Below, piece after piece: positions 1 to 54,323 of a DNA stretch of 64,000 nt; positions within the stretch are counted from its first letter, which is position 1; each line of letters starts with the position of its first letter. The position numbers and the translations under genes are program-made. Source of the stretch: JBBIPZ01 sp037442505 [NCBI: Deltaproteobacteria bacterium] (GTDB lineage: Bacteria > CALINM01); assembly GCA_037442505.1 (NCBI GenBank), contig JBBIPZ010000002.1, positions 70,085 through 134,084 on the forward strand, written 5' to 3'. Below the pieces are notes generated by a model, which was not told where the DNA came from, made no database searches, and saw nothing but the letters and a program-made list of their open reading frames with translations.

Positions 1-420
1 GATTGTTATGACAGATATTTAGTTAGGCTTGAAGAACTCAGACAGAGTAACAGGATTTTAAAGCAGGCTTTAAAGATGCTTCCATCTGGTGCTGTAAATG
101 CAGATGTTCCTCAGCTCGTCTTTCCGGAAAAGGAGAAAGTTTTAACAAACATTGAGTCTCTCATAATGCAGTTTAAATTGGCATCTGGAGGTTTTACAGT
201 GCCTAAGGGTGAAGTTTATGCCTCGGTCGAAAATGCTAAAGGTGAATTTGGTTATTACATTGTTAGCGATGGTTCATCAAAACCATATAGAATGAGAATC
301 AAATCCTCGTGTTTCATTAACCTTTCTGCATTGCCTTTTATTGTTAAGGGTTCTATGGTAGCGGATGTGGTGGCGGTGATAGGTAGCATAGATATAGTTT
401 TAGGAGAAATAGACCGTTAA
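1..420 (+). CDS. nuoD: NADH-quinone oxidoreductase subunit D, 3' end (partial)
   Basis: This is the C-terminal 139 residues of NuoD, the 49-kDa subunit that helps form the quinone-binding site of complex I. The frame is open from base 1 and reads DCYDRYLVRLEELRQSNR, a typical NuoD segment, before the first internal ATG at 76. The conserved end of the family (a YRMRIKSSCF segment, then a VVAVIGSIDIVLGEIDR terminus) is present, so only the 5' part is cut off by the window edge. The next gene begins 12 bases downstream in the same operon. The upstream nuoABC genes presumably lie outside the window. Confidence 0.95.
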   Translation, partial: DCYDRYLVRLEELRQSNRILKQALKMLPSGAVNADVPQLVFPEKEKVLTNIESLIMQFKLASGGFTVPKGEVYASVENAKGEFGYYIVSDGSSKPYRMRIKSSCFINLSALPFIVKGSMVADVVAVIGSIDIVLGEIDR

Positions 421-432
421 ACGGAGATAAAC

Positions 433-2349
433 ATGTCAGAAAAGACGTACTGTTTTTGGAATAACGAACAAATTGATTGTAGTAAGCCGCCTGAATATGC
501 TGATAAACCGGTTTCAGCTGTTATAGGGTGGGGAGGATTGCAGCTTTTTGATAACAGTTTAAATGTCGTTGCCCTATGTTATGAATATGCTAAGGCAATA
601 CAGGAGAACTCTTGCGGACAATGTATTCCATGTCGTGCGGGGACAAGGGTTATAAGAGATATCATGGAAAAGATTGTAAATGGGGAAGGTAGTGAAGCCG
701 ATCTTGAAGCGTTGCTACAACTTGCCACTAATATCTCACAGTCATCCATGTGTGAAATAGGTCAAAGTTCACCGCTTGTTTTTATCGAATTAATTACAAA
801 TCATCGGGACAGCTTCCTTGAAGTGATAAATAAAAAAACGAAGATAACTGCATCTGATTACGAGTTCAAGACGATATTGACCGCACCCTGTATGCAGGCG
901 TGTCCAATACATTTAGACATACCCAGGTATATCGAAGAGATTAAGTATGGAAGGTTTGAGACTTCGCTTGATGTTATCAGAGAAAGATTGCCACTGCCTG
1001 GAGTGGTTGGCAGGGTTTGTGTAAGACCATGTGAATTTAACTGCAGGCGTGGTTTGATTGACGAACCATTACAGATAAAGCACTTAAAGAGATTTGTGGC
1101 TGATTTTGAAAGAGAAAGATCGCTTACACCTCAATTTTCAAAAGTAGAGCCAAAGGATATCAAGGTTGCTATAATCGGTGCCGGACCAGCTGGACTGACT
1201 GCCGCGTTCTTTCTTGCAAAACTGGGGTATCAGGTAACAATATTTGAGTCATTACCTGAGCCTGGTGGTATGGCAGCGGTTGGTATCCCGGATTACAGAT
1301 TGCCAAGAGAGATACTTGGTGGCGAGGTGTCAAACATCGAGAAGCTGGGCGTAAAGATAATTTATAATAAAAACTTTGGCATTGATTTTAGCATTGAAGA
1401 GCTCGAACAAGAAGGGTTTAAGGCATTTTTCGTAGGATTAGGATGTCATTGTCATAAAAAGCTGGATATAGAGGGTGAAGACCAGTCGTTACAGGGGTAT
1501 ATACCCGGAGTATATTTTCTACGCTATATCAATCTCAATCAGGAGATACCAAAAGGTAAAAAGATAGTCGTTGTTGGTGGCGGCAATGTTGCTATGGATT
1601 GTGTTAGAAGTGCTGTGAGAATGGGGTTTGAAGATGTAAACATCGTTTACAGAAGGTCAAAAAAGGAGATGCCTGCTGATTACGTTGAGGTTATCGAAGC
1701 AGAAGAAGAGGGAGTAAAGTTCCACATGCTTACTGCTCCCAAAAGATTAATCAGTAAAGATGGTAAAATCGTCGGCCTGGAGTGTATAAAGATGGAGTTG
1801 GGTAAACCTGACGCCTCAGGCAGAAGAAGTCCCGTTCCAGTGCCCGGTTCAGAATTTATTATTGAGACTGACGTTTTAGTCCCTGCAATAGGTCAGGAGG
1901 CGGATATTGGATGTTGTGTGACAGGCATTAAAGGTGTTGAAATAACGAAGAAAGCGACGATTAAAGTTGATGAAAACTTTATGAGCACAAGGATGGGTGT
2001 CTTTGCTGGTGGCGACTGTGTAACAGGTGCAGATGTGCTTATCAGGGCATGTGCGCATGGAAGGCTTGCAGCGATAAAGATAGACAAATTTCTCAAAGGC
2101 GAAAAGCTCGAACTACTGCCAGAGGAACATGATGTGAAATTTGTAGAACCGCTTAAACCATATTTGCCAACCGAAAAAATGAAGATACCGGGCGGAATAA
2201 AAAGAGTCCCTATAAAACATGATTCACCGGAAGAAAGAATCAAAAGTTTTATGGAGTACACGAAAGGTTATTCCAATACAGATGCTATTAATGAGGCATC
2301 GCGTTGCTTGAGATGTTACAGAATAGTAACCTATGCTTATGCAAAATAG
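433..2349 (+). CDS. NuoF C-terminal domain fused to GltD-type NADPH/FAD oxidoreductase
   Basis: 638 residues in two parts. Residues about 30-130 match only the end of NuoF: the SCGQCIPCR motif (Cys61, 64, 67) plus Cys107 would bind the N3-type [4Fe-4S] cluster. The FMN/NADH-binding domain that normally precedes it is absent. Residues about 145-638 are a glutamate synthase beta (GltD)-like module with cysteines at 153, 157, 196, 200 and 204, an FAD Rossmann motif GAGPAGL (249-255), and a second nucleotide fold GGGNVAMD (382-389) followed by VYRRSKKEMPA. In GltD and NfnB relatives the YRR stretch favours NADPH. The gene sits where nuoE and nuoF belong and has a GGAG ribosome site. It probably feeds NADPH electrons to complex I or releases them; this is inferred. 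It resembles the SfrB-type partner of NuoG-like proteins in Geobacter. Confidence 0.88.
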   Translation: MSEKTYCFWNNEQIDCSKPPEYADKPVSAVIGWGGLQLFDNSLNVVALCYEYAKAIQENSCGQCIPCRAGTRVIRDIMEKIVNGEGSEADLEALLQLATNISQSSMCEIGQSSPLVFIELITNHRDSFLEVINKKTKITASDYEFKTILTAPCMQACPIHLDIPRYIEEIKYGRFETSLDVIRERLPLPGVVGRVCVRPCEFNCRRGLIDEPLQIKHLKRFVADFERERSLTPQFSKVEPKDIKVAIIGAGPAGLTAAFFLAKLGYQVTIFESLPEPGGMAAVGIPDYRLPREILGGEVSNIEKLGVKIIYNKNFGIDFSIEELEQEGFKAFFVGLGCHCHKKLDIEGEDQSLQGYIPGVYFLRYINLNQEIPKGKKIVVVGGGNVAMDCVRSAVRMGFEDVNIVYRRSKKEMPADYVEVIEAEEEGVKFHMLTAPKRLISKDGKIVGLECIKMELGKPDASGRRSPVPVPGSEFIIETDVLVPAIGQEADIGCCVTGIKGVEITKKATIKVDENFMSTRMGVFAGGDCVTGADVLIRACAHGRLAAIKIDKFLKGEKLELLPEEHDVKFVEPLKPYLPTEKMKIPGGIKRVPIKHDSPEERIKSFMEYTKGYSNTDAINEASRCLRCYRIVTYAYAK

Positions 2350-2366: not shown

Positions 2367-5051
2367 ATGCGTGTTGTAATAAACGGTAAAGAGATAGAAG
2401 GGCAGGAAGGAAAGACAATTTTAGAGTTAGCAAGAGCTGCTGGAATCTATATTCCAACACTTTGCTATCTTGAAAAGGTTTTACCGATAGGTTCCTGTCG
2501 TATGTGTGTTGTTGAAGTTGAAGGGTATGAAAAGCCTGTTACAGCCTGCAATACACCAGCTGTAGATGGCATGAAGGTAGAAACAAACACTCCCAGATTA
2601 AAACAGATGAGGCAGGACATACTTAAATTTATGCTGCTCAATCATCCTTTAGACTGCCCTATCTGCGATAAGGCTGGGGAATGTAAACTACAAGACCTTG
2701 TTTATGAGTATGAAGTAAGCGAACAGACATACAACGTTTTAGCTCCAAAGAAAGAGTATAAAGAGTACTCGACACCTGCTATTAAGTATCATCCCAATAG
2801 GTGTGTGGTATGTAGTCGTTGTGTGAGGGTATGTAGAGAAAGCGTTGGAAGGAATGTTCTTGATTTAAAAGGGAATGGTTTTGATGCGCGGGTAGAAGTT
2901 GTCAATCCAGAACGTTGTATATCGTGTGGAGAATGTTTAGCGGCGTGTCCAGTTGGCGCTCTGACAGAAAATATGAGCCCTACAAAAGGAAGGCTGTGGC
3001 AGATAAAAAGGGTACCAACCGTTTGTGGATACTGTGGTGTAGGGTGTAACCTGGAGCTGAACGTGTTTGAAAATAGGATAATAAAGGTAACGACCAACGA
3101 CTTTGCCGGTCCTAACAAAGGCAAATTGTGTGTAAAGGGCAGGTTTGGCTACGAGTTTGTCAATAGCAGTGAAAGGCTGACAAAACCGTTGATAAGAAAA
3201 GATGGTCAGTTGGTTGAGACGAGCTGGGAAGAGGCATTAAATTACATTGCAACAAAACTATCTGATATAAAAGCTAAGCATGGTTCTGATAGCATTGCAG
3301 GATTAACTTCAGCACGTTGTACAAACGAAGATAATTATGTTTTTCAAAAATTCATACGCGCAGTGATCGGTACAAACAATTTAGATCACTGCGCCCGTCT
3401 CTGACACTCTTCTACGGTGGCCGGTCTGGCTGCCACATTAGGTTCAGGGGCAATGACAAACTATATAGAAGACTTTAAAAACGCGGAAGTGTTACTTGTT
3501 TTAGGTAGCAACACCACCGAGACGCATCCGGTGATAGGAATGTGGTTAAGACAGATTGCTCGTTATAAGGGTGTAAAAATTATCGTTGTTGACCCGAGAA
3601 AGATTGATCTGGTAGAAGAGGCTACCCTCTGGCTATCACCCAAGCCGGGATATGACATTGCCATTATAAACGGTATGGCTAATGTAATCATTTCGGAAGG
3701 ACTTTATAATGCAAAGTTTATTGAAGAGAATACAGAAGGTTTTGAAGAATTAAAACAGGTTGTTGCTAAATATACACCAGAGTATGTTGAAGAACTTACA
3801 GGCATCTTTGCAGAGAAGATTATAGAGGCAGCGAGGCTGTATGCTAAATCAAAGGCTTCAGCGATTCTGTACTGTATGGGAATAACACAGCACTCAAAAG
3901 GGACAGACAATGTAAAAGCGCTGTCAAACTTGGCGCTTCTTTGCGGCCATATTGGCAGACCCGGAACGGGTGTTAATCCTTTAAGAGGTCAGAATAATGT
4001 TCAGGGTGCCTGCGATATGGGTGGGCTTCCAGACGTTTTCCCCGGATATCAGAAGGTAAATATAGAGGAAAACAGGAAAAAGTTTGAAGAATTCTGGGGA
4101 GTTAAACTTTCAGGCACTCCGGGATTAACAGTTGTAGAGATGAGCCATGCTGCAGAGGAAGGCAAATTAAAGGCGTTATACATAATGGGTGAAAATCCAC
4201 TTGTTACAGATCCAGACCTTGAGCATGTCGAAAAGGCGTTTAGCAAACTGGATCTTTTTGTTGTTCAGGATATTTTTCTTACTGAAACAGCAAAACTTGC
4301 TCATGTTGTTTTACCTACAGCTTCTTTTGCAGAGAAGAATGGCACATTTACCAACACTGAACGCAGGGTTCAGAGGGTAAGAAAGGCTATAGACTCGCCC
4401 GGTGAGGCAAGGCAGGATTGGCAGATTATTTGTGACATAGCCACAAAGATGGGCTATCCAATGAACTATAAGGATGCAGAAGAGATCTTTGAAGAGATTC
4501 GAAAGGTTACACCTCAGTATGCAGGAATTACATACAGGAGATTAGGGCTCACTGGAATCGCATGGCCATGTCCAGACACATCACATCCTGGCACTCCAAT
4601 ATTACATACTGCAAAGATTGTAAGAGGCAAAGGCTTATTTGTTGGCGTTGAGTTTAGACCGCCAGCAGAAACGCCAGACAAAGAGTTTCCTTTTGTATTA
4701 ACTACAGGAAGGGACTACTATCAATACCATTCTGCTACGATGACGAGGAAGTCATGGTTGCTTAACAATTTCTGTCCTGAAAGTATGGCAGAAATAAATC
4801 CGAAAGACGGTGAAAAGCTTGGTATAAGTGACGGAGACTGGATAAAGATAAAGAGCAGAAGAGGACATGTAATAGTAAAGGCAAAATTAGCAGACAGGGT
4901 TCCGGAAGGTGTTGTGTTTAAAAGATTCCACTTTAAAGAGGCAGCTGTCAATAAATTAACTAATCCAATACTTGATCCAGTATCAAAGATACCCGAGTTT
5001 AAAGTATCTGCTGTAAAGATAGAGAAGTTCGAAAAGGGGAAGGCAATATGA
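2367..5051 (+). CDS. fdhF: Selenocysteine formate dehydrogenase alpha / NuoG-like subunit (TGA read-through)
   Basis: A single 894-residue protein results if TGA 3402-3404 is read as selenocysteine (Sec346). The peptide around it is DHCARL-Sec-HSSTVAGLAA, the catalytic loop of formate dehydrogenases, including the His that follows Sec. Domains in order: [2Fe-2S] ferredoxin (Cys33, 44, 47, 61); NuoG-type His/Cys cluster segment (about 90-120); two [4Fe-4S] motifs (RCVVCSRCVRVC, RCISCGECLAACP); the Fe4S4 motif of molybdopterin enzymes (CGYCGVGC...LC, about 220-260); the molybdopterin/tungstopterin catalytic domain; and a C-terminal dinucleotide-binding domain. The start ATG at 2367 has a GAGGAG ribosome site; an upstream in-frame start at 2304 would overlap the previous gene. 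It takes the nuoG position and overlaps nuoH by 4 bases. Unlike ordinary NuoG, it keeps the catalytic Sec, so CO2/formate activity is likely. Confidence 0.92.
3402..3434 (+). promoter_or_regulatory. Selenocysteine TGA codon and bacterial SECIS-like hairpin
   Basis: The TGA (3402-3404) is followed after 11 bases by a hairpin: 5' arm GGTGGCC (3416-3422), loop GGTCT (3423-3427), 3' arm GGCTGCC (3428-3434). This gives seven continuous pairs, five Watson-Crick and two G-U. The loop matches the AGGUCU-type apical loop of the E. coli fdhF SECIS that SelB binds, at nearly the same distance from the UGA. The hairpin lies inside the coding sequence, as bacterial SECIS elements do. Confidence 0.9.
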
Positions 5052-6052
5052 TTGATATTGATATTAATCTTGTAATTTTTACCCTTATAAAAATTGTTGT
5101 CGTCTTCGCCTGTGTGATGTTATGTGTGGCGTATCTAACGTGGATTGAAAGAAAGGTTATAGGACATATTCAGATAAGGGTAGGTCCAATGTATGCGGGC
5201 TGGCATGGGTTGTTACAACCAATTGCTGACGGTATTAAACTATTTTTCAAAGAAGACATAATGCCTGCTAAGGCAAGCAAGGTGCTTTTTGTATTAGCGC
5301 CAATGATAAGTATTGTGCCTGCTTTAATGAGTTTTGCCGTGATACCTTTTGGCGACACCACCACCTTTTTTGGATTACTTAAAGAACCTGTGCCAATGAG
5401 GATTACAGAGTTAAACATAGCTATACTTTATATCTTTGCCCTTGCCGGGTTAGGTTCTTATGGTGTGGTTTTTGGAGGATGGTCAGCCAACAATAAATAT
5501 GCATTGATGGGCGCATTAAGAGGTGCAGCCCAGATGGTCAGTTACGAGCTTGCACTTACGCTTTCTATTCTTGGTGTTGTGATGATTTCTGGCTCTCTTA
5601 ACCTCGTTCAAATAGTTGAAGGTCAAAAGGAAGTGTGGAATGTTGTGTATCAACCTGTGGCTTTTATACTCTATCTCATCTGTGGAACCGCAGAACTTAA
5701 CAGGACACCTTTTGATATGCCTGAGGCAGAATCAGAGCTTGTTGCGGGTTTCCACGCTGATTACAGCAGCATGAAGTTTGCGATGTTTTTTATGGCTGAG
5801 TATGCAAATATGATAACGATTGCAAGTTTAGCAACTACCTTATTTTTAGGTGGCTGGCATGGTCCATTTTTACCGCCACTTGTATGGTTTATGATTAAGG
5901 TTTTTGTTCTCGTTTACTTTTTTATCTGGCTGAGGGCTACATATCCAAGGGTCAGATATGACCAGTTGATGAAGTTTGGTTGGAAGGTATTGGTGCCGAT
6001 AGCTTTGGCAAATATTATTGTCACTGGTGCAGTGATGCAGTTTATCAAATAG
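5048..6052 (+). CDS. nuoH: NADH-quinone oxidoreductase subunit H
   Basis: 334-residue membrane subunit that joins the peripheral arm of complex I to the proton channel arm and forms part of the quinone tunnel. The family signature WIERKVIGHIQIRVGP appears near residue 32, followed by the acidic loop with GTAELNRTPFDMPEAESEL around residue 215. About eight hydrophobic segments are visible. The start codon overlaps the stop of the formate dehydrogenase-like gene (ATGA), so the two are translationally coupled. Length is normal for the family. Confidence 0.97.
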   Translation: MIDIDINLVIFTLIKIVVVFACVMLCVAYLTWIERKVIGHIQIRVGPMYAGWHGLLQPIADGIKLFFKEDIMPAKASKVLFVLAPMISIVPALMSFAVIPFGDTTTFFGLLKEPVPMRITELNIAILYIFALAGLGSYGVVFGGWSANNKYALMGALRGAAQMVSYELALTLSILGVVMISGSLNLVQIVEGQKEVWNVVYQPVAFILYLICGTAELNRTPFDMPEAESELVAGFHADYSSMKFAMFFMAEYANMITIASLATTLFLGGWHGPFLPPLVWFMIKVFVLVYFFIWLRATYPRVRYDQLMKFGWKVLVPIALANIIVTGAVMQFIK

Positions 6053-6067
6053 GACAGGTGAAAGATT

Positions 6068-6484
6068 ATGATTAAGCCATTAATAAAAGGTCTCATTGTA
6101 ACGTTAAGATATTTTTTTAGCAAACCTGTTACTGTGCATTATCCTGAAGAAAAGGTTGGTTCTTTTCCTCAATATAGAGGGCTACATATCATTAGAAGAA
6201 AAACGGACGGAAGCATAAAATGTGTTGCCTGTGGTCTTTGCGAAGCCATATGTCCGGCAAAGGCTATTAAGATAGAAATTGGAGAACTTGAAGACGGCAT
6301 AAGGTATCCAAAAAGCTATATTCTTGACGGCTGGCGTTGTATATATTGTGGTTTGTGTCAACAGGCATGTCCAGTGAACGCTATCATTTTAACTCCGGAA
6401 TACGAAAACGCCCGCTATACGCGAGAAGAGCTAATTTTAGACAGAGACACTCTGTTAAAAAGAGGTGACGAGGTAAAATTATGA
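6068..6484 (+). CDS. nuoI: NADH-quinone oxidoreductase subunit I (two [4Fe-4S] ferredoxin)
   Basis: 138 residues carrying two [4Fe-4S] motifs, CVACGLCEAICP and CIYCGLCQQACP, which hold clusters N6a and N6b that pass electrons from the peripheral arm towards the quinone site. An amphipathic N-terminus (LIKGLIVTLRYFF) fits membrane association. It overlaps nuoJ by 4 bases (ATGA). Its presence means the electron wire into the membrane arm is intact despite the unusual input module upstream. Confidence 0.97.
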   Translation: MIKPLIKGLIVTLRYFFSKPVTVHYPEEKVGSFPQYRGLHIIRRKTDGSIKCVACGLCEAICPAKAIKIEIGELEDGIRYPKSYILDGWRCIYCGLCQQACPVNAIILTPEYENARYTREELILDRDTLLKRGDEVKL

Positions 6485-7002: not shown

Positions 7003-7305
7003 ATGATATCTACAAATTTCCATTTAGTGATAGGTATTCTGCTTTTTTCGATAGGTGTTTTAGGCTTTATTATAAGGCGCAACCTGTTGATATGTTTCAT
7101 GTCGATAGAGCTAATGCTCAACTCTGTAAACCTTATCTTTGTGACGTACTCAAATATGGTTAAATCCACAATAGGTTTGATGTATGTTTTTTTTATTATG
7201 GCGGTAGCAGCGGCGGAAGTTTCTATAGGGCTTGCGATAATCATCCTTTTGTTCAGGCAAAAAGGCACAGTTGATATGGACAGCCTTAATACATTGAAAG
7301 GGTAG
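7003..7305 (+). CDS. nuoK: NADH-quinone oxidoreductase subunit K
   Basis: 100-residue three-helix membrane subunit. The family core LICFMSIELMLNSVNLIFV carries the conserved membrane glutamate, and a second glutamate follows in AAAEVSIGLAII; both belong to the proton path. A strong GGAGGAG ribosome site precedes the ATG. Standard operon position between nuoJ and nuoL. Confidence 0.97.
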   Translation: MISTNFHLVIGILLFSIGVLGFIIRRNLLICFMSIELMLNSVNLIFVTYSNMVKSTIGLMYVFFIMAVAAAEVSIGLAIIILLFRQKGTVDMDSLNTLKG

Positions 7306-7313
7306 GTGAGATT

Positions 7314-9230
7314 ATGTTCAGATACATTGTTTTTATTCCACTTTTTCCTGCTATAGGCGCATTTTTAAACGGAGTTTTTGGTCACAGGTTTACAAAAAAT
7401 GCCGTGCATACGATAGCGATCACTGCAATAGGGCTTTCATTCCTTTTTTCGTTATATGCGTTTTTTCAGTTGATAGGGTTGCCATCACATGAAAGGGTTA
7501 TAGAAGAGGTTGTTTATTCCTGGATAGGTACGGGCAACTTTTCTGTTAACGTAGCGTTTCTGTTAGACCCGTTAAGCTCTATAATGCTGCTTGTTGTTAC
7601 TGGTGTTGGCTTTTTGATACATATTTATTCAGTTGGATATATGCATCATGACAAGGCTTACTGGCGTTTCTTTACATATTTAAACCTGTTCGTATTTGCG
7701 ATGCTGCTTCTTGTTATGGGAAACAACTTTTTGATGATGTTTGTAGGCTGGGAAGGTGTGGGGCTATGTTCCTATCTTTTAATAGGCTTCTGGTATGAAG
7801 ATAACAACAACGCAAATGCAGGTAAGAAGGCGTTTGTCGTCAACAGAGTGGGTGACTTTGGCTTTATATTGGGTATATTTTTGATATTTACAACGTTTGG
7901 AACCATTACTTATAGAGAAGTGTTTGATAAGGCAACAATGATGCTGCCCTATGGTGGTACACTTGCGACAGCAATCACGTTATTGCTTTTTGTAGGTGCT
8001 ACAGGTAAATCTGCACAGATTCCATTATATGTATGGCTACCAGATGCTATGGCAGGTCCAACGCCGGTGTCAGCGTTAATCCATGCTGCTACAATGGTAA
8101 CAGCCGGTGTTTATATGATTGCACGTTGCAACGTGCTGTATTCACTTGCTCCTTTTAGTCTGGGCGTTGTTGCAACGGTTGGAGCAGTAACCGCATTATT
8201 TGCAGCTACTATGGGGCTTTTGCAAAGAGACATTAAGAAAGTGCTGGCTTACTCAACAATCAGTCAGCTTGGATATATGTTTCTGGGGGTAGGGGTTGCA
8301 GCCTACTCTGCAGGCGTGTTTCACTTAATGACACATGCATTCTTTAAGGCTCTTCTCTTTTTGGGCGCAGGCAGCGTTATACATGCTATGGGTGGAGAAC
8401 AGGATATAATGAAGATGGGTGGTTTGAGAAGGCACATTCCCAGAACATTTCTCACATTTTTTATAGGTACTCTGGCAATAGCTGGAACACCGGGATTGGC
8501 AGGATTTTTTAGTAAGGATGAAATCCTATGGCAGGCGTTTTCGAGTCCGCATGGACACCCTGTTTTATGGTTAATAGGCGCAGTAGCTGCGGGCATGACC
8601 TCTTTTTATATGTTCAGACTAACCTTTCTTACCTTTTTTGGAACAGAAAGGATGGATGAGCACACGAAACATCATATTCACGAATCACCAAACAGTATGG
8701 TTATACCATTGATGATACTTGCAATTTTATCTATTGTAGGCGGGTATGTTGGTGTGCCAGAGGCGTTAGGCGGGAGCAATCACTTCCATCATTTCTTCGA
8801 ACCTGTTATAAGGCATATTGGAGAGGTAAAGGAAGGGCATTTTTCGCATGCGCTTGAGTATGGGTTAATGGCAACCTCCGTGGGAATTGCTGTTATTGGC
8901 TTTTTAATCTCCTATACATTTTACATCAAAAATCCACAGCTGCCTGAAAAACTAAAGAACAGTATGGCAGGGCTATACAAGCTGATATTTAATAAATACT
9001 ATGTTGATGAGATTTATGAGTTTGTGTTTGTCAAAGGATGTAAAGGTTTAGGCACATTATTATGGCAGAAATTCGATGTCCTGGTAGTTGATGGTATTGT
9101 TAACGGAGCAGGAACAGTCGTTGAGTTTTTTGGCAAAACAATAAGAAGACTGCAAACTGGATATGTGCAGAACTACGCAGTGGGTATATTGTTAGGGATT
9201 GTAATAATACTTGGGATATTTATCTTTTAA
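7314..9230 (+). CDS. nuoL: NADH-quinone oxidoreductase subunit L (antiporter-like)
   Basis: 638 residues, the terminal ion-pumping subunit. The Proton_antipo core is clear: MMFVGWEGVGLCSYLLIGFW (conserved Glu), GKSAQIPLYVWLPDAMAGPTPVSALIHAATMV and GLAGFFSKDEI. The C-terminal part contains the lateral helix (FYIKNPQLPEKLKN onwards) and a last membrane anchor ending ILGIFIF. Start ATG follows a GGTGAG ribosome site 8 bases after nuoK. Confidence 0.97.
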   Translation: MFRYIVFIPLFPAIGAFLNGVFGHRFTKNAVHTIAITAIGLSFLFSLYAFFQLIGLPSHERVIEEVVYSWIGTGNFSVNVAFLLDPLSSIMLLVVTGVGFLIHIYSVGYMHHDKAYWRFFTYLNLFVFAMLLLVMGNNFLMMFVGWEGVGLCSYLLIGFWYEDNNNANAGKKAFVVNRVGDFGFILGIFLIFTTFGTITYREVFDKATMMLPYGGTLATAITLLLFVGATGKSAQIPLYVWLPDAMAGPTPVSALIHAATMVTAGVYMIARCNVLYSLAPFSLGVVATVGAVTALFAATMGLLQRDIKKVLAYSTISQLGYMFLGVGVAAYSAGVFHLMTHAFFKALLFLGAGSVIHAMGGEQDIMKMGGLRRHIPRTFLTFFIGTLAIAGTPGLAGFFSKDEILWQAFSSPHGHPVLWLIGAVAAGMTSFYMFRLTFLTFFGTERMDEHTKHHIHESPNSMVIPLMILAILSIVGGYVGVPEALGGSNHFHHFFEPVIRHIGEVKEGHFSHALEYGLMATSVGIAVIGFLISYTFYIKNPQLPEKLKNSMAGLYKLIFNKYYVDEIYEFVFVKGCKGLGTLLWQKFDVLVVDGIVNGAGTVVEFFGKTIRRLQTGYVQNYAVGILLGIVIILGIFIF

Positions 9231-12312: not shown

Positions 12313-14250
12313 ATGGAAGAGCTGTTAATAGACTTTTATCCGGATCAAAAATCCGCCAGAATCGAGAAAGGCGGTAATCTTTTAAAGGCTGCCCATGCTG
12401 CTGGTGCACATATCAATGCGTCATGTGGTGGTGCTGGTACCTGTGGACAATGTAAAATTATAATAGAAAAGGGAGAATACGAAACTAAACGTTCAGATAA
12501 ACTGACAGAAGAAGAATGGCAACAGGGCAAAAGATTAGCCTGCCAGACCATTGCACTTACAGATCTTATAGTGAGAATTCCCCCCGAATCAAAGCTTGAC
12601 AGGACAGTATTAAAAAGAAAAGAGAAAAAATCAGAGCAAGACAAATCTTTTGGACTTACAGCATTAAAAATAACGATTGAAGAAGCTTTCGAAACAGAGC
12701 CTGTTATAGTGAAAAGATATATTCAGCTTGCCCCCCCTTCTATAGAAAACAATATGGGGGACCTAACGCGGGTAATAATGGCTTTGAAAAAACAGTATGA
12801 TTATGAAAATCTTGATGTGGATTTTAAGGCATTAAAAACATTATCAACAGTTTTAAGAAAGGCAAACTGGAACGTTACCGTTCTTATTTTAGAAAAGGAT
12901 GGATATACACCCAAAATTATTGGAGTAGAAGAAGGGGATACTACAGATAAATTTTATGGTATAGCTGTAGATGTTGGAACAACAACACTTTACGTTCAGC
13001 TTATCGATATGAATAATAAAACTGTACTTGCTGAAGCGTCCGATTATAATCCCCAAATAAGTTATGGTGAAGATGTTATAACAAGGATTCTTTATGCCAT
13101 TAAATCATCAGGGCTTGAAAGGCTTCAGGAAGCCGTGATCAAATCTTTGAACAACTTGATAAACGAAGTAGTTAAGGAAGCAGGGGTAGATAAAAATCAT
13201 ATCTGTTTAATCATCACAGCTGGCAATACAACGATGACCCAACTTTTGTTGGGCATAAATCCAAAATACATAAGAGAGCATCCTTATGTACCTTCGGTTA
13301 ATTTTTATCCATTCATAAGGGCTTGCAACATGGGTTTTGATTTGCCGACACATGTTTACCTATACACAATGCCGGTGATAGCGAGTTATGTCGGAGGAGA
13401 TATAGTTTCTGGTGTCATGGCTTGTTCCGTTCATCAAAATCAAGAGCTTGTGCTTTTTATTGATGTGGGGACAAATGGAGAGATTGTGCTTGGAAACGCA
13501 GACTGGATGGTCACAGCATCCTGTTCAGCTGGTCCTGCTTTTGAGGGCGGTGGCGTAAAATATGGTATGAGGGCTACAAGGGGAGCGATAGAAAATGTTG
13601 AGATTGATAAAGAGACTTTTGAGCCCAGGATATACACAATTGGAAATTTAAAACCAAAAGGTATTTGTGGTTCCGGGATGATAATACTACTTGCAGAACT
13701 TTTCACGAAAGGCTTAATAACTCCAGATGGCAAGTTTGTGAAAACTTTAAATACAAACAGGATACGCGAAGGTGAGAATGGCTACGAGTATGTCCTCGCG
13801 TGGAAGGAAGAAACCCAGATTGGCGTTGATCTTGTGATTACCGAAGTGGATATTGATAACATTATAAGAACTAAGGGAGCTATATACGCAGGTTGTTCGG
13901 TATTACTGAAAAGTGTTGGTCTTGATTTTACAAATATTGAAAAGTTTATTATTGCAGGGGGTTTTGGCAGTTTTATTAACGTGGAAAAGGCGATAATTAT
14001 TGGATTATTACCAGACATTCCACCTGAAAGATTTATGTATGTGGGTAACAGCTCACTTGCAGGTGCAAGACTTGCTGTTTTTTCAAAAGAAAAGTTGATT
14101 GAAGCTGAAAGATGTGCTAATATGATGACCAATATAGAGCTCAGCAATTATCCGAGCTTTATGGAAGAGTATGTGGCTGCTTTATTTTTGCCACACACCG
14201 ATTTAAACAAGTTTCCATACGTAATGGAACAAATAAAGGGGAATAGCTAA
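12313..14250 (+). CDS. acsV: Reductive activator of corrinoid iron-sulfur protein (RACo, ASKHA family)
   Basis: 645 residues. The N-terminus is a plant-type [2Fe-2S] domain (Cys38, 44, 47, 77). The C-terminal half is an ASKHA-type ATPase (DUF4445) with GIAVDVGTTTLYVQL near residue 218 and VLFIDVGTNGEIVLGN near 380. RACo uses ATP to re-reduce inactive Co(II) of the corrinoid protein AcsCD to Co(I), so that it can accept methyl groups again. The gene heads the acs cluster and overlaps cooC by one base. A possible -10 box (TAAAAT, 12296-12301) lies only 11 bases before the ATG and no Shine-Dalgarno is visible, so the transcript may be nearly leaderless. Confidence 0.92.
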   Translation: MEELLIDFYPDQKSARIEKGGNLLKAAHAAGAHINASCGGAGTCGQCKIIIEKGEYETKRSDKLTEEEWQQGKRLACQTIALTDLIVRIPPESKLDRTVLKRKEKKSEQDKSFGLTALKITIEEAFETEPVIVKRYIQLAPPSIENNMGDLTRVIMALKKQYDYENLDVDFKALKTLSTVLRKANWNVTVLILEKDGYTPKIIGVEEGDTTDKFYGIAVDVGTTTLYVQLIDMNNKTVLAEASDYNPQISYGEDVITRILYAIKSSGLERLQEAVIKSLNNLINEVVKEAGVDKNHICLIITAGNTTMTQLLLGINPKYIREHPYVPSVNFYPFIRACNMGFDLPTHVYLYTMPVIASYVGGDIVSGVMACSVHQNQELVLFIDVGTNGEIVLGNADWMVTASCSAGPAFEGGGVKYGMRATRGAIENVEIDKETFEPRIYTIGNLKPKGICGSGMIILLAELFTKGLITPDGKFVKTLNTNRIREGENGYEYVLAWKEETQIGVDLVITEVDIDNIIRTKGAIYAGCSVLLKSVGLDFTNIEKFIIAGGFGSFINVEKAIIIGLLPDIPPERFMYVGNSSLAGARLAVFSKEKLIEAERCANMMTNIELSNYPSFMEEYVAALFLPHTDLNKFPYVMEQIKGNS

Positions 14251-14999
14251 TGGCGTTTTTTGTTGCAATGGCAGGTAAAGGTGGAACAGGCAAAACAACA
14301 GTTGCTGGGCTGATTGTCAATATCTTATTATCAAAAGGCAAATCACCAATTCTTGCAGTAGATGCTGATGCAAACTGTAATCTTAACGAAGTATTGGGCG
14401 TTAAGTTAGGAGAAACCATAGGCAGGATAAGGGAAGAGGTTCTTCAGGTGCCCCCCGGTATGACCAAAGATGCATATATAGGCTATCGTGTCCAGGAGGC
14501 ACTTGTTGAAAGCGATGGCTTTGATCTGATTGCGATGGGAAGACCAGAAGGTGCAGGTTGTTACTGCTATGCAAACGTCTTATGTAAAAAATATGTTGAC
14601 ATTCTAGCAGATAATTATAATTATGTAGTGATTGATAATGAGGCAGGGCTGGAACATATGAGCAGGAGAACGACGCATGGTGCAGATTTGATGGTAATTG
14701 TTACGGATGCGTCTCAAAGAGGTGTTATTACAGCGTCAAGGATAAGAGACCTTGCAGAAGAACTAAAGCTTAAGATAAATAAAACAGTGTTGATATTGAA
14801 CAGGGTCGAAGGTGAGATTTCCGAAGAAACCAAAAAAGAGATAGAGAAAACAGGGCTTGAGCTGGGTTGTGTGTTGCCCGCTGACGAGACGATAAAGATG
14901 TTTGATGAAAAAGGTATATCCACGCTAACCCTTCCAAAAGACAACCCGGTATTGAAAAAAGTAGAGGCTTTTGTAGATAAGTACATAATAAATGCATAA
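14250..14999 (+). CDS. cooC: CooC/AcsF-type nickel-insertion ATPase
   Basis: 249-residue MinD-type P-loop ATPase with the deviant Walker A GKGGTGKTT (residues 9-17). A Cys-X-Cys pair in GAGCYCYAN (Cys104, Cys106) corresponds to the metal-binding cysteines of CooC proteins. These ATPases mature the Ni-containing active sites of CODH or acetyl-CoA synthase. Placement between acsV and acsD supports the ACS-maturation (AcsF-like) role, but sequence alone does not separate AcsF from CooC. Start overlaps the acsV stop (TAATG). Confidence 0.9.
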   Translation: MAFFVAMAGKGGTGKTTVAGLIVNILLSKGKSPILAVDADANCNLNEVLGVKLGETIGRIREEVLQVPPGMTKDAYIGYRVQEALVESDGFDLIAMGRPEGAGCYCYANVLCKKYVDILADNYNYVVIDNEAGLEHMSRRTTHGADLMVIVTDASQRGVITASRIRDLAEELKLKINKTVLILNRVEGEISEETKKEIEKTGLELGCVLPADETIKMFDEKGISTLTLPKDNPVLKKVEAFVDKYIINA

Positions 15000-15022: not shown

Positions 15023-15955
15023 ATGGCATTTAAAGAACCAGTAGAAAAGTACAACAATGCAGTAACAGAAGTTGAAATCTCCGGCTTGAAGGTTGGAGGA
15101 CAATCCGTATTAACAGGCGTTTACACATTTGATGGTCCCGTTCCCAATGCTCCTAAAATTGCGATGGAAGTTCTTGATTCCAGGCCAGAAGAGTGGCCAC
15201 AGACTTTAATTGACGCATTAGGAGATGTTTATGACGACCCGGTCAAATGGGCTCTAAAGTGTCAAAATGAGTACAAGGCAGATATGATTTGTTTGAGCCT
15301 TGTCAGCACAGATCCAAACGGTATGAACAAATCTGCTTCCGAGGCTGCCGCTGTAGCAAAGGCAGTTCTTGATGCGATTAACATTCCTTTGATTGTTTAT
15401 GGTAGCTTAAATAGCGAAAAGGATGGTGAGGTTATAAAGGCTGTTGGAGAGGCTTGTCATGGTAAAGTAATGCTTGTTGGCCCAGCAGACGATGAAAACT
15501 ACAGAACAATAGGTGGGTCTGCATTAGGATATAAACATAAGGTTGCAGCAAATTCTCCGATAGATGTAAACCTTGCAAAGCAGCTAAACATCCTTTTGGG
15601 CAATCTTGGTGTGCCAATGGATTCAATAGTCATAGATCCAACCACAGGTGGTTTGGGATATGGTATTGAGTACACCTTTTCTGTTATGCAGAGAATCAGG
15701 TTGGCAGCACTTGCACAGGGTGATGATAAGCTCAAATCACCTTTCATAAACCTGATTGGAAAAGAGGCATGGAAGGCGAGAGAAGCAAAGATATCCGAGC
15801 AAGAAGAACCTACTTTTGGTGATTTAGCAACACGTGGCATCCTTTGGGAAGCAATTACAGCAATCAATCTACTTGTCTCCGGCTCAGACATTATGGTGTT
15901 AAGACATCCTGAAGCTGTCAGGCTTGTTAGAGCATTTCTAAACGAGTTTAAATAA
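15023..15955 (+). CDS. acsD: Corrinoid iron-sulfur protein small subunit (CODH/ACS delta)
   Basis: 310-residue TIM-barrel subunit of the corrinoid iron-sulfur protein. Recognisable stretches are GGQSVLTGVYTFDGPVPN near residue 25 and VIDPTTGGLGYGIEYTFSVM near residue 205. Together with AcsC it carries the methyl group from AcsE to the A-cluster of AcsB. A GGGGGAG ribosome site precedes the ATG. Confidence 0.95.
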   Translation: MAFKEPVEKYNNAVTEVEISGLKVGGQSVLTGVYTFDGPVPNAPKIAMEVLDSRPEEWPQTLIDALGDVYDDPVKWALKCQNEYKADMICLSLVSTDPNGMNKSASEAAAVAKAVLDAINIPLIVYGSLNSEKDGEVIKAVGEACHGKVMLVGPADDENYRTIGGSALGYKHKVAANSPIDVNLAKQLNILLGNLGVPMDSIVIDPTTGGLGYGIEYTFSVMQRIRLAALAQGDDKLKSPFINLIGKEAWKAREAKISEQEEPTFGDLATRGILWEAITAINLLVSGSDIMVLRHPEAVRLVRAFLNEFK

Positions 15956-15980: not shown

Positions 15981-18173
15981 ATGTCTAAGATTATAGCATC
16001 ATCAGCGATTAGGGGAGCCCATGCCATATATGACAGGGTTTCTAAGAAGTACAAAGAGGCTCTCGAAAAGTTTGGGCCAGACAAGAAGGTAGAATTGCCC
16101 AACACTGGTTACTATCTGCCGGTCATCTATGGTTTGTTAGGACACCCGGTAAAGACACTTGGCGATATGCAACCAGTTCTTGACAAGTGCAAAGACCTTT
16201 TGCCACCATTTGTTAATGATAAGGTATGGGTTCCATACTTGGGTCATACACTTGATGCAGGTGCGGCTACACTTTTTCTATTCGAAATAGAAGAATCATT
16301 GAAATATCTTGAAGATCTTGTTCCATATTTCATAGCAGAAGACTGTGATGAAGACCATCTTTGGTTGGGAGCAGCAGATGATATCATCTTGAGGAAAAGA
16401 GGCGTTGAGTTTGTCGATGGAACAGCGCCTGGGTTTGCCGCAGTGGTTGGAGAAGCACCAGATGTAGAGACAGCGGTTAGTTTAGCAAAACAGCTTATCG
16501 AAAAACAGTTGTACGTATTTATGGCTGGTGGTAAGTTTGCTGAACAGTTGAAAAAGGGTGGCATGCAGTTAGGATGGAGCACACGTTTGGTTCCTTTTGG
16601 AGAACCGGTTTCTGCACACATCTTCTCATTAGGTTTTGCTACAAGGGCAGCGCTTGCCTTTGGTGGTATTAAACCTGGTGACTTTAAAAATGTTCTACTT
16701 TACAACAAAAATAGGGTTTTTGCTTTTGTCCTTGCCCTTGACGAGGTTACAGAAGAAAGGTATGCAGCAGCAGCGGGAGCAATCAATTATGGATTCCCTG
16801 CTATTGCACATACTAACATCCCACAGATATTACCAACAGGTATCTGTACATATGAACACGTAGTAAGTAATGTGCCACTTAACGAAATCGTTGATAAAGC
16901 GGTGGAGGTAAGAGGTCTTAAAGTTACTGTTACAAAAATTGATATCCCTGTTTCTTACGGGCCAGCATACGAAGGTGAAAGGGTTAAGAAAGAAAACATG
17001 AGGGTTGAGTTGGGCGGTCCAAAATCCTTTGGTTTTGAGTTCTGCCAGATGAAAGATATGGATGAAGTAAAAGATGGCCATTTTGAAGTAATAGGTCCCG
17101 ATCTTGACGAAATACCTGAAGGTGCCACAGTGCCAATAGCTATCTGGTTAGAGGTTGCAGGTAGAAAGATGCAGGAAGACTTTGAACCGATTCTCGAAAG
17201 ACAGTTCCATCATCTATTAAACCAGGCGGAAGGTGTATTACACATTGGACAGAGAGACATCATCTGGATGAGAATCACGAAGAAGGCGTTTGATAGCGGT
17301 TTCAGATTGAAGCATTTAGGTACAATACTTCACGCAAAACTGCACAATGACTTTGGCAACATCCTTGATAAGATACAGGTTAAAATTTATACAGAGCCGG
17401 AAAAGGTTAAAGAATTACTTGAAGTCGCAAGAAAGACTTACAGAAAGAGAGAAGAAAGAATGGCAGGCATGACAGACGAAAGTGTTGATCTGTTCTATTC
17501 CTGTACACTTTGTCAGTCTTTTGCTCCCACACATGTTTGTGTCGTAACTCCAGAAAGACCTGGGCTTTGTGGTGCATACAACTGGCTCGACTGTCGTGCA
17601 GCTTATGAAATTAACCCAACTGGTCCTAACCAGCCAATTACAAAAGGAACTGTTTTAGATGAACTTACCGGGCAGTGGGATACTGTTAACCAGTTTGTAT
17701 ATGAAAAATCAGGAAACGCCATAGAAAGATTCAGTGCCTACTCTATACTTCAAGATCCAATGACATCCTGTGGATGTTTTGAGGCGATAGTTGTTATTTT
17801 ACCGATGACACAGGGCTTTATGATCGTTGATAGAGATTTTAATGGAATGACGCCTTGTGGAATGGCATTCTCCACGCTTGCTGGTCAGGTTGGTGGTGGT
17901 GCACAGACACCGGGGTTTGTTGGAATTTCAAGACAGTTTGTTCTTAGCAAGAAGTTTTTACTTGCAGAAGGTGGCTTGCCAAGAGTAGTGTGGATGCCCA
18001 AGGCGATGAAAGAGTTCTTAAAAGAAGGTATTGAGAAAAGAGCTCAGGAGCTTGGTCTTGAAGATTTTTACAACAAAATTGCGGATGAGACTATTGCTAC
18101 GACCGAAGAAGAGCTTATGGAGTACCTCCAGAAGGTAAACCATCCTGTTCTTTCGATGGAACCATTAATGTAA
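15981..18173 (+). CDS. acsB: Acetyl-CoA synthase, CO-methylating (CODH/ACS beta)
   Basis: 730 residues, the full bacterial length (Moorella ACS has 729). The A-cluster ligands are all present: Cys508, 511, 520 and 530 for the [4Fe-4S] cube, and the Cys597-Gly598-Cys599 motif that holds the distal nickel; numbering is two higher than in Moorella. The enzyme joins CO, the methyl group of the corrinoid protein and CoA into acetyl-CoA. The N-terminal domain that docks CODH and forms the CO tunnel is present, so a CODH partner is expected elsewhere in the genome. GGAGGAG ribosome site. Confidence 0.97.
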   Translation: MSKIIASSAIRGAHAIYDRVSKKYKEALEKFGPDKKVELPNTGYYLPVIYGLLGHPVKTLGDMQPVLDKCKDLLPPFVNDKVWVPYLGHTLDAGAATLFLFEIEESLKYLEDLVPYFIAEDCDEDHLWLGAADDIILRKRGVEFVDGTAPGFAAVVGEAPDVETAVSLAKQLIEKQLYVFMAGGKFAEQLKKGGMQLGWSTRLVPFGEPVSAHIFSLGFATRAALAFGGIKPGDFKNVLLYNKNRVFAFVLALDEVTEERYAAAAGAINYGFPAIAHTNIPQILPTGICTYEHVVSNVPLNEIVDKAVEVRGLKVTVTKIDIPVSYGPAYEGERVKKENMRVELGGPKSFGFEFCQMKDMDEVKDGHFEVIGPDLDEIPEGATVPIAIWLEVAGRKMQEDFEPILERQFHHLLNQAEGVLHIGQRDIIWMRITKKAFDSGFRLKHLGTILHAKLHNDFGNILDKIQVKIYTEPEKVKELLEVARKTYRKREERMAGMTDESVDLFYSCTLCQSFAPTHVCVVTPERPGLCGAYNWLDCRAAYEINPTGPNQPITKGTVLDELTGQWDTVNQFVYEKSGNAIERFSAYSILQDPMTSCGCFEAIVVILPMTQGFMIVDRDFNGMTPCGMAFSTLAGQVGGGAQTPGFVGISRQFVLSKKFLLAEGGLPRVVWMPKAMKEFLKEGIEKRAQELGLEDFYNKIADETIATTEEELMEYLQKVNHPVLSMEPLM

Positions 18174-19571: not shown

Positions 19572-20465
19572 ATGTCAAAAGTAATCACAATTGCAGAAAG
19601 TATCAACATTATGTCCAAGACGATAGGGCCTGCTATCAGGGAAAGAAACAAGGCTCCTATTCAAAAGATGGCTGTAGAAGAAACAGAGGCAGGTGCAGAT
19701 TATCTTGATCTAAATTTAGGACCGGCAAGAAAGGCTGGTGACGAGGTGATGGAGTGGCTTGTAAAAACAGTTGAAGAAGTTTCTGATTTACCATTATTTC
19801 TTGATACAACCAACCCAGTTGCGATCGAGGCAGGTATCAAGGCTGCAAAGAAAAATCTGCCAATAATCAACTCCATATCTGCTCAGACAGAGTCACTGCA
19901 AACAAAACTTCCACTTGTAAAGAAGTATGGCTGTGATTTTGTCGCTTTAACACTTTCGGAAGAAGGCATTCCAAGGGATGCAGCAGAAAGAGGAATGTGT
20001 TTGGTAACCATAATGAGCGCAGCTGCAGAGATGGGAATACCAAACGAAAAACTCTGGGTTGACCCGATAGTGCTTCCCATATCTGTTGACCTCAATCAGG
20101 TACTTGCTTTTCAGGAGTTTATACCTCAGGTACAGGAAATCTGTCCCGGTGCAAAAACAACATGTGGTCTTTCTAACGTTTCAAATGGTGCGCCGACAGA
20201 CGAGTTAAGAAGGGTGCTTAACAGGGCATATCTTGCAATGTTAAAGAAGTTAGGACTTTATTCAGCTATAGTCGATAGTTATGATAAAGAGATGATGCAG
20301 TTATGTGCCGGCAATATGTCAGAAATTGAAGAGCTCGTTTCAAAAATGATGGATGGTTATGAGCCTGATATGAACAGCCTTAACGAGCAGCAGCAAAAAT
20401 ATGCAAAAAGCGTTAGGGTTCTCTTAGGTAAGGTTCTTTATTCTCATTCCTGGTTAGAAGTTTAA
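19572..20465 (+). CDS. acsE: Methyltetrahydrofolate:corrinoid iron-sulfur protein methyltransferase
   Basis: 297-residue pterin-binding TIM barrel. Typical features are GADYLDLNLGPARKAGDEVM near residue 40, LFLDTTNP near residue 76 and TTCGLSNVSNGAP near residue 196. It moves the methyl group of 5-methyl-THF onto Co(I) of AcsCD. A GGAGGGAG ribosome site precedes the ATG. The stop is 3 bases before the following methionine synthase-like frame. Confidence 0.95.
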   Translation: MSKVITIAESINIMSKTIGPAIRERNKAPIQKMAVEETEAGADYLDLNLGPARKAGDEVMEWLVKTVEEVSDLPLFLDTTNPVAIEAGIKAAKKNLPIINSISAQTESLQTKLPLVKKYGCDFVALTLSEEGIPRDAAERGMCLVTIMSAAAEMGIPNEKLWVDPIVLPISVDLNQVLAFQEFIPQVQEICPGAKTTCGLSNVSNGAPTDELRRVLNRAYLAMLKKLGLYSAIVDSYDKEMMQLCAGNMSEIEELVSKMMDGYEPDMNSLNEQQQKYAKSVRVLLGKVLYSHSWLEV

Positions 20466-54314: not shown

Positions 54315-54323
54315 ATTCCCCCC

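What the first reader, a model, noticed from the sequence alone, without database searches (positions are those of the whole stretch)
2367..5051. Complex I operon encodes a selenocysteine formate dehydrogenase in place of NuoG
The frame breaks at TGA 3402-3404 but resumes at once with DHCARL-Sec-HSSTVAG, the catalytic loop of formate dehydrogenase, and an E. coli fdhF-like SECIS hairpin follows 11 bases later. A conventional gene finder would report two broken genes. Conventional NuoG subunits have lost the catalytic residue. A catalytic Sec enzyme hard-wired into nuo implies direct formate/CO2 chemistry coupled to quinone and ion pumping.
Basis: partly seen in the sequence, partly recalled or inferred. 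Interest (0 to 1): 0.88.

Follow-up and report, generated by a model that had tools for sequence, protein, structure and literature searches.

The report
Formate enzyme built into complex I
A respiratory complex I operon carries a selenium-dependent, apparently active formate dehydrogenase in the place where complex I normally has a dead relative of that enzyme, and the same arrangement turns up in other anaerobes, in both live and dead versions.

Summary
Window 2367-5051 encodes a full-length selenocysteine formate dehydrogenase (FDH; Sec346-His347-Arg540) in the NuoG slot of a nuo operon that runs on into CODH/ACS genes. TGA stands at the aligned codon in 69 of 126 FDH-like genes collected, and a covarying SECIS hairpin follows it: all six stem pairs form in 65 of 67 Sec genes, 2 of 26 Cys homologues and 0 of 26 without Sec/Cys-His. 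The nearest relative (76%) has the same operon and selA, selB, selC and selD; in its MAG I found no NuoF FMN/NADH domain and no other FDH.

The case is not unique. Of the 46 readable, 21 keep Sec or Cys followed by His. The other 25 have lost that pair; the 21 of these that were aligned keep nearly all Fe-S ligands. The family shares complex I's N5-loop signature (CPxCD) but lies apart from canonical NuoG.

Best reading: a complex I variant fed by formate, and probably NAD(P)H. Subunit docking, formate:quinone activity and pumping are inferred, not shown. Nine full-text searches gave no report of it.

The parts
1..420 (+). C-terminal part of NuoD (cut by the window edge)
   Evidence: Complex1_49kDa E 7.9e-56
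433..2349 (+). FG: NuoF C-terminal [4Fe-4S] domain fused to a GltD/NfnB-like FAD/NAD(P)H module, in the position of NuoE/NuoF
   Evidence: NADH_4Fe-4S, Fer4_20 and Pyr_redox_2; GltD-family NCBIfam hits, all below cut-off; no Complex1_51K match in this protein
2367..5051 (+). Sec formate dehydrogenase alpha subunit with NuoG-like N-terminal Fe-S domain, in the NuoG slot
   Evidence: AF2 pLDDT 91
3402..3404 (+). in-frame TGA, Sec346
   Evidence: aligned TGA in 69 of 126 collected FDH-like genes, window included; in frame in 68
3417..3433 (+). SECIS stem-loop, 6 bp, loop GGUCU at 3423-3427
5048..6052 (+). NuoH (overlaps the FDH stop by 4 nt)
   Evidence: NuoH models, NF004741 above cut-off
6068..6484 (+). 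NuoI
   Evidence: TIGR01971
6481..6993 (+). NuoJ
   Evidence: Oxidored_q3
7003..7305 (+). NuoK
   Evidence: Oxidored_q2
7314..9230 (+). NuoL
   Evidence: TIGR01974
9243..10784 (+). NuoM
   Evidence: TIGR01972
10784..12229 (+). NuoN
   Evidence: TIGR01770
12313..14250 (+). RACo/AcsV-like corrinoid activator; start of the CODH/ACS run
   Evidence: RACo domains; NF040756 715.5 bits, below its cut-off of 800
14250..14999 (+). CooC/MinD-like ATPase
   Evidence: MinD/ParA models below cut-off; the name CooC is recalled
15023..15955 (+). CODH/ACS delta subunit
   Evidence: CdhD
15981..18173 (+). acetyl-CoA synthase subunit (CODH/ACS alpha/beta model)
   Evidence: NF040764 1054.6 bits, above cut-off
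18202..19545 (+). CODH/ACS gamma subunit
   Evidence: NF003195 605.1 bits, above cut-off
19572..20465 (+). pterin-binding methyltransferase (AcsE-like)
   Evidence: Pterin_bind; the name AcsE is recalled

Best explanation
The operon encodes a complex I variant whose electron-input module is not NuoEFG. The NuoG position holds a working Sec (Mo/W-bisPGD) formate dehydrogenase, and the NuoE/F position holds a NuoF[4Fe-4S]-GltD fusion with FAD and an NAD(P)H site. Electrons from formate pass from the Sec-metal site through the N7-type [4Fe-4S] cluster into the N-terminal chain that NuoG normally supplies, then through NuoI and NuoB to menaquinone, driving pumping by NuoH/L/M/N. The GltD module feeds (or drains) the same chain with NAD(P)H. 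In this lineage the enzyme is probably the only FDH and therefore also the formate step of the Wood-Ljungdahl pathway, whose CODH/ACS genes continue in the same run. Shown: gene content and order, Sec/SECIS, intact triad and cluster ligands, complex I-type N5 loop, recurrence of the slot arrangement. Inferred: docking as a subunit, formate:quinone activity, pumping, the NAD(P)H input, direction of flow.
For: (1) FDH sits exactly between FG and NuoH, with a 4-nt overlap into nuoH; the order is the same in L001, with nuoA-B-C-D upstream. (2) Of 80 regions fetched (80 genomes), 47 have NuoD-FG-FDH/NuoG-like; of the 43 of these in my gene table, 40 also show nuoA, B and C. Of the 46 readable ones, 20 have Sec and 1 Cys followed by His; 25 have lost this (read). 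(3) All 39 'slot' proteins in the 112-row alignment keep every ligand of the N1b, N5, second ferredoxin-type and N7-type clusters; 35 of 39 keep all of the first ferredoxin-type cluster (Cys to Asp in 4); cluster names by homology, recalled. Dead ones hold on to the N-terminal Fe-S domain (51.5% to the window) while the catalytic domain drifts (39.0%). A protein kept in the same slot as a wire after losing catalysis is what a complex I subunit would be. (4) Residues P57, P98, D101 and R145 are 49 of 49 in slot and pre-nuoA proteins but 10, 4, 7 and 11 of 51 in stand-alone FDHs; P98 and D101 make the N5 loop CPxCD, as in mitochondrial 75-kDa and bacterial NuoG and in 9 of 12 canonical NuoG beside nuoD. 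(5) One branch (SH-aLRT 98) parts 47 rows, 44 of them nuo-associated, from 24 rows, 21 of them stand-alone. (6) Relative G001: no Complex1_51K domain found (9 of 14 controls match), one FDH found, FTHFS present, all four sel functions. (7) Full NuoD of L001 has GPQHPATHG and ends without a CxxC motif: quinone-type, not NiFe (motif meaning recalled).
Against: FG-FDH pairs exist without NuoD nearby (14 of 80), so the pair can probably work as a soluble enzyme. In the pre-nuoA class (L125, L157, L171, L172, L175, L177) FG abuts NuoH and the Sec FDH lies just upstream of nuoA, so the slot is not obligatory. The window's N-terminal domain scores equally with FdsA (161 bits), a NiFe-hydrogenase subunit (158) and NuoG (158). 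L153/L154 and L156/L158/L163 break the clean split of the tree. No complex was modelled and nothing biochemical is known. G001 is a MAG of unstated completeness, so its absences are weak.
Confidence: 0.74

Rival explanations
1. FG and FDH form a soluble NAD(P)-dependent formate dehydrogenase that is only co-transcribed with an 11-subunit complex I; complex I takes its electrons from ferredoxin or another donor.
For: 14 of 80 fetched regions have FG-FDH without NuoD. Published work on 11-subunit complex I suggests ferredoxin or several partners (PMC11238625 passages; PMC4287179 passages). In D. hafniense an operon annotated nuoEFG was reassigned to a soluble FDH.
Against: 25 of 46 readable slot proteins have lost Sec/Cys-His yet stay in the slot; the 21 of these in the alignment (19 'slot', 2 'slot?') keep the ligands of four clusters, which makes little sense for a soluble FDH. 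Complex I-type N5 loop residues P98 and D101 in 49 of 49 slot/pre-nuoA proteins.
Confidence: 0.17
2. The slot protein is a pure electron wire from the GltD module (NAD(P)H) to the Q module; its formate chemistry is vestigial also in Sec forms.
For: Many slot homologues have lost the catalytic residues. In L159, and probably L168, a short FDH with the Sec codon is encoded upstream of nuoA while the slot copy is dead.
Against: In all 19 slot Sec proteins of the alignment the Sec-His-Arg triad is complete, and in 65 of 67 Sec genes examined the SECIS stem is complete, a costly feature that would decay. In relative G001 it is the only FDH found.
Confidence: 0.05
3. The TGA is a true stop or a sequencing error and the gene is broken.
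For: The frame is interrupted; single-sequence folding is no better than shuffles.
Against: TGA at the same codon in 69 of 126 FDH-like genes, with a hairpin that follows Sec and not Cys; sel genes in the nearest relative.
Confidence: 0.01

Closest known systems
NAD+-dependent formate dehydrogenase alpha subunit FdsA (Rhodobacter capsulatus, PDB 6tg9)
   Same: Same domain order and cluster set; 785 bits over 3-886; AF2 model TM 0.96/0.91
   Different: Here Sec instead of Cys (FdsA Cys recalled), encoded inside a nuo operon, partner is a NuoF[4Fe-4S]-GltD fusion rather than FMN-type FdsB/G (partner subunits recalled); complex I-type N5 loop CPICD where FdsA has CLTCA
Canonical NuoG / Nqo3 / 75-kDa subunit of complex I
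   Same: Same operon position, same N-terminal clusters and N5 loop; NuoG-family score 432 bits; Foldseek TM 0.78 to mycobacterial NuoG
   Different: Keeps a complete FDH active site; below the NuoG equivalog cut-off; outside the canonical NuoG group (support 100). PMC10100899 (passages) says Nqo3 likely diversified from cytoplasmic FDHs and lists it as lacking the metal cofactor
[quoted passage not shown]
   Same: Same Q and P modules, no NuoEFG; G001 has one directly upstream of the FDH-bearing operon
   Different: Here an input module (FG + FDH) is encoded in place; for the 11-subunit form the donor is described as unknown or several partners (PMC11238625 passages). PMC8671834 (passages) speculates that an acetogen lacking nuoG might couple FDH or hydrogenases to complex I, without naming such an operon
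ForCE menaquinone-linked FDH of Bacillus (PDB 8rqz)
   Same: FDH with NuoG-like N-terminal domain, menaquinone reduced; model Z 53.9
   Different: ForCE uses a small DUF1641 partner and has no predicted transmembrane segment (PMC8808070 passages); no pump
Stn/Nfn-type transhydrogenases and SfrAB
   Same: GltD-like module beside NuoF/NuoG-like parts: chains 9bov_A 414, StnC 8oh5_C 374 and NfnA 9n5u_A 372 bits to FG
   Different: Those have no complex I membrane arm (recalled); for SfrAB I saw only passages in PMC13186404
Formate hydrogenlyase (FHL)
   Same: FDH joined to a complex I-like membrane arm (E. coli FHL chain 7z0t is among the FDH matches)
   Different: Quinone-type NuoD (GPQHPATHG) with no C-terminal CxxC in L001; full NuoJ/K/L/M/N set

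Membership tests
Mo/W formate dehydrogenase alpha (FdhF/FdsA type) | family model above cut-off | tested here: met
   TIGR01591 906.7 bits, cut-off 666.25
Mo/W formate dehydrogenase alpha (FdhF/FdsA type) | catalytic Sec/Cys, adjacent His, active-site Arg | tested here: met
   U346, H347, R540; roles of the residues recalled from E. coli FdhF
Mo/W formate dehydrogenase alpha (FdhF/FdsA type) | formate oxidation activity | not testable with these tools
   none
Bacterial selenoprotein | in-frame TGA with SECIS just downstream | tested here: met
Bacterial selenoprotein | selA, selB, selC, selD in the genome | tested here: inconclusive
   Window genome not held; all present in relative G001
Canonical NuoG | family model above cut-off | tested here: not met
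   TIGR01973 432.2 bits, cut-off 470.05
Canonical NuoG | no metal active site | tested here: not met
   triad intact
Canonical NuoG | groups with canonical NuoG in a tree | tested here: not met
   11 canonical rows are one side of a branch, support 100, N5 columns left out
Canonical NuoG | operon position before nuoH and N1b, N5, ferredoxin-type and N7 ligands | tested here: met
NADH:quinone complex I (14 subunits) | NuoF FMN/NADH domain (Complex1_51K) | tested here: not met
   no match in the window protein nor in the MAG of relative G001
NADH:quinone complex I (14 subunits) | Q and P modules | tested here: met
   NuoD and NuoH-N in the window; nuoA-D in L001
NADH:quinone complex I (14 subunits) | FDH physically assembled in the complex | not testable with these tools
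   indirect only
Formate hydrogenlyase | NiFe-binding CxxC motifs in the NuoD-like subunit | tested here: not met
   full NuoD of L001 has the quinone-type motif and no C-terminal CxxC; the window holds only the C-terminal part, which has none
ForCE | DUF1641 partner subunit | not tested
   not searched for

The most novel reading that the evidence does not exclude
This is a second, independent recruitment of formate dehydrogenase into the NuoG slot, caught in the act: one family holds live Sec enzymes, half-dead ones (L179: Cys, His lost, Arg kept) and fully dead wires. In the window's lineage it is a reversible energy-converting formate/CO2 complex I: menaquinol plus proton-motive force (or NAD(P)H through the GltD arm) drives CO2 to formate for the Wood-Ljungdahl methyl branch encoded in the same gene run, and formate oxidation pumps ions in the other direction.
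Probability: 0.3. Interest if true: 0.92.

Novelty: new variant of a known kind. Interest (0 to 1): 0.74.

Why it matters
The electron donor of complex I lacking NuoEFG in anaerobes is left open, or given as ferredoxin or merely 'not NADH', in the papers seen (PMC11238625, PMC12142623, PMC4911364, PMC4287179; passages only). Here a concrete input module is encoded in place: formate, probably with NAD(P)H. It would be a formate-driven ion pump by direct coupling rather than a redox loop, and it would place the first step of the Wood-Ljungdahl methyl branch on complex I. It also makes the origin of NuoG from formate dehydrogenase testable: PMC10100899 infers that event long ago, and here the same kind of loss, read as three changes on the tree, has left live and dead versions in one operon position. 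Because the TGA splits the gene in mechanical ORF calling, such operons may be listed as lacking NuoG or as having a broken FDH.

Tried and rejected
Single-sequence SECIS folding: not better than shuffles; replaced by comparison. Rfam gathering scan: only a tRNA, no SECIS model hit. Idea that the find is unique to this genome: rejected. Idea that it is the ancestor of canonical NuoG: the tree puts canonical NuoG in a separate group, but on 312 columns with long branches, so only mildly against. Idea that dead slot copies are canonical NuoG: L160 scores 573 bits to an FDH and 255 to a complex I subunit, L174 323 to 228. Idea of a sulfate reducer: dsrA not found in G001, but that is a MAG. A tandem FDH-like pair with Glu at the Sec place (L020) was not followed further. 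Papers whose passages I saw and did not use as evidence: PMC7117926, PMC4046663 (it reports nuoEF-fdhF units without other nuo genes).

Rows dropped: one search collected 126 FDH-like genes; 112 passed length and coverage limits for (L118 and L136 among those left out; L114, L145, L187 and L111 never entered the table and were read alone). 104 rows went into, 71 were chosen for, 61 for (three NuoG candidates, L200, L206 and L210, left out). In one search one of 68 TGA genes (L031) was left out, and five gapped genes were left out of its control. The 80 regions are the 80 best rows, one per genome; they are a sample biased to close relatives, not a census of the 395 genomes. The two definitions 'slot' and 'slot?' were pooled. 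Of the 17 regions, two (L213, L214) were blind guesses and matched nothing. Literature: nine searches were answered; absence from print means absence from those.
Full report
1. Observation. Window 2367-5051 reads as one protein of 894 aa if TGA 3402-3404 is Sec. Its domains are a [2Fe-2S] domain, the NuoG-type His-Cys3 cluster domain, two ferredoxin-type clusters, and the molybdopterin Fe4S4, catalytic and C-terminal domains. NCBIfam's formate dehydrogenase alpha model matches above cut-off, its NuoG model below cut-off. The AF2 model (pLDDT 91) is closest to FdsA-type FDHs (TM 0.95-0.96; Z 52-54), with NuoG lower (TM 0.78 mycobacterial, 0.76 E. coli).

2. Is the TGA Sec? Of 126 FDH-like genes gathered, window included, 69 have TGA at the aligned codon, and 68 were read in frame. 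The six-pair stem at +15..+31 with loop GGUCU, GGACU or GGGCU is complete in 65 of 67 Sec genes (one distant gene left out), in 2 of 26 Cys-His homologues and in 0 of 26 homologues without Sec/Cys-His (20 slot proteins and 6 others, 3 of them distant molybdoenzymes); pairs 17-29 and 20-26 each show both-sided changes in eight distinct sequences. The protein context of most of these genes is alike, so the hairpin follows the Sec codon rather than the peptide. The window genome is not held. In the genome of the nearest relative (L001, 'Proteobacteria' MAG SKW176, 76% identical FDH) selA, selB, tRNA-Sec and selD are present; selD has a TGA of its own. Single-sequence folding of the window gave no signal (z -0.24).

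3. Operon. The order is nuoD - FG - FDH - nuoH-I-J-K-L-M-N, then a RACo/AcsV-like activator, a CooC-like ATPase, CODH/ACS delta, alpha/beta and gamma, and a methyltransferase, all on the + strand. FG is the NuoF C-terminal [4Fe-4S] domain fused to a GltD/NfnB-like FAD module; the FMN/NADH domain is absent. L001 has the same run with nuoA-B-C-D complete, and directly upstream of it an 11-subunit nuo operon without E, F or G. In that MAG no Complex1_51K domain is found (9 of 14 control genomes match). PF00384 hits only this FDH and a protein with a Tat-like start that is QrcB-like (81 bits, below that model's cut-off) next to an NrfD-like membrane protein and a multihaem cytochrome (NrfD and Tat by eye). 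Formate-THF ligase is present and dsrA is not found. So, as far as a MAG can tell, the nuo-borne FDH is its only FDH and must serve the Wood-Ljungdahl formate step.

4. It is a class. The held collection puts G001 in a phylum with 3 held genomes, and FG is found in 1 of these 3. In the phylum of G002 (genome of L021, Desulfobacteraceae RAAP-1) FG-like proteins match in 340 of 395 sampled genomes, many only as GltD kin. I fetched the 80 best rows, one per genome: 47 have NuoD-FG-FDH/NuoG-like, 8 have NuoD-FG-NuoH, 14 have FG-FDH without NuoD, 11 are other or cut. Of the 47, one is cut; 20 have Sec, 1 has Cys with His (L142), 25 have lost this (Ser, Thr, Gly, Ala, Asp, Leu, Tyr, gaps, or Cys-Leu), read. 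In six loci a Sec FDH of the window's closest group lies just upstream of nuoA instead. In L159, and probably L168, a short FDH without the NuoG-like domain lies upstream of nuoA while the slot copy is dead (the L168 copy could not be read through cleanly).

5. Is the slot protein a complex I subunit? (a) All 39 'slot' proteins in the alignment keep the ligands of the N1b, N5, second ferredoxin-type and N7-type clusters, also the 19 that lost the triad; four have Cys to Asp in the first ferredoxin-type cluster. (b) Dead copies stay close to the window in the N-terminal domain (0.515) but not in the catalytic one (0.390); live slot copies 0.538 and 0.608; stand-alone FDHs 0.388 and 0.537. (c) P57, P98, D101 and R145 are fixed in 49 of 49 slot and pre-nuoA proteins and less common in 51 stand-alone ones (10, 4, 7 and 11). 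P98 and D101 make the N5 loop CPxCD, which is that of the mitochondrial 75-kDa subunit and bacterial NuoG and of 9 of 12 canonical NuoG found beside nuoD here (L204, L206 and L211 differ). The N-terminal domain of slot protein L176 scores best with complex I (172 bits, FdsA 157), that of stand-alone L005 with hydrogenases (165), then FdsA (145) and complex I (129); the window's own is a tie (FdsA 161, NuoG 158, NiFe-hydrogenase subunit 158). (d) One branch (SH-aLRT 98) parts 47 rows, 44 of them nuo-associated, from 24 rows, 21 of them stand-alone; exceptions are L156, L158, L163 on the first side and L020, L153, L154 on the second (similar). With canonical NuoG added and the N5 columns left out, the 11 NuoG rows are one side of a branch (100) and the slot family, with L140, L158, L180 and L208, is one side of another (97) inside the FDH part; there L153/L154 do join the slot family. 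The label 'dead slot copy' needs three changes on the tree. All this is indirect; a soluble FG-FDH enzyme that is merely co-transcribed is not excluded for the Sec forms.

6. Mechanism. Formate to the Sec-metal site, N7-type cluster, N-terminal clusters, NuoI, NuoB, menaquinone, with pumping by the membrane arm; FG as a second port for NAD(P)H. Using recalled potentials (about -430 mV for CO2/formate, -74 mV for menaquinone) the drop of about 0.35 V is ample for complex I pumping. The quinone-type motif in L001 NuoD and the lack of a C-terminal CxxC argue against hydrogenase chemistry. Direction is open: the adjoining CODH/ACS genes fit either acetate oxidation or CO2 fixation.

7. Literature. 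Nine answered full-text searches gave no report of an active FDH in the NuoG slot. Passages read say that nuoEFG is absent and the donor unknown, ferredoxin, several, or not NADH (PMC11238625, PMC12142623, PMC4911364, PMC4287179, PMC9686372, PMC5736913). One speculates that an acetogen without nuoG might couple FDH or hydrogenase to complex I (PMC8671834). One reports a complete nuo set and a Sec FDH split in two ORFs in Desulfococcus multivorans (PMC5109826); I did not check whether they adjoin, so a named example may already be in print unrecognised. One says Nqo3 likely descends from cytoplasmic FDHs (PMC10100899). Most papers of subscription journals are not in that library.

Noticed in passing
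L020 7332-12697: Two tandem FDH/NuoG-like genes with Glu in place of Sec346 in a split nuo operon of a MAG (Dive96_bin3.184); the second frame is short in my reading.
   Followed up: partly
L159 16877-18910, L168 659-2812: A short FDH with the Sec codon but without the NuoG-like Fe-S domain lies upstream of nuoA while the slot copy is catalytically dead, as if catalysis and wire had been split between two genes (L168 not read through cleanly).
   Followed up: partly
L179: Slot protein with Cys346-Leu347 and Arg540 still present: a possibly recent, partial loss of the active site.
   Followed up: partly
L208 (G015): FG followed by a short NuoG-like protein in a nuo operon of a genome among the relatives of G001: FG-type complex I outside the main sample.
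   Followed up: no
L115, L116, L130: NuoD-FG-NuoH (L115: FG-NuoH at a contig edge) with no FDH-like gene recognised in the stretch fetched: a complex I with the GltD port but no NuoG relative in view.
   Followed up: no
L001 1-5516 and L077 82-3969: An 11-subunit nuo operon without nuoEFG directly upstream of the FDH-bearing nuo operon: two complex I types in tandem.
   Followed up: partly
L190 (G001 C95:51038-51943): selD of the relative has an in-frame TGA, so SelD itself is probably a selenoprotein.
   Followed up: no
L195 (G001 C79): QrcB-like molybdopterin-fold protein (below the model's cut-off) with a Tat-like start, beside NrfD-like and multihaem cytochrome genes.
   Followed up: partly
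G090 C96:69916-75279: A 1794-aa open frame holding two FDH-like matches in tandem (one TAA inside one match).
   Followed up: no
window 53679-55178: fchA-like (recalled) and folD (THF dehydrogenase/cyclohydrolase) genes: more of the folate C1 branch, on the - strand.
   Followed up: no
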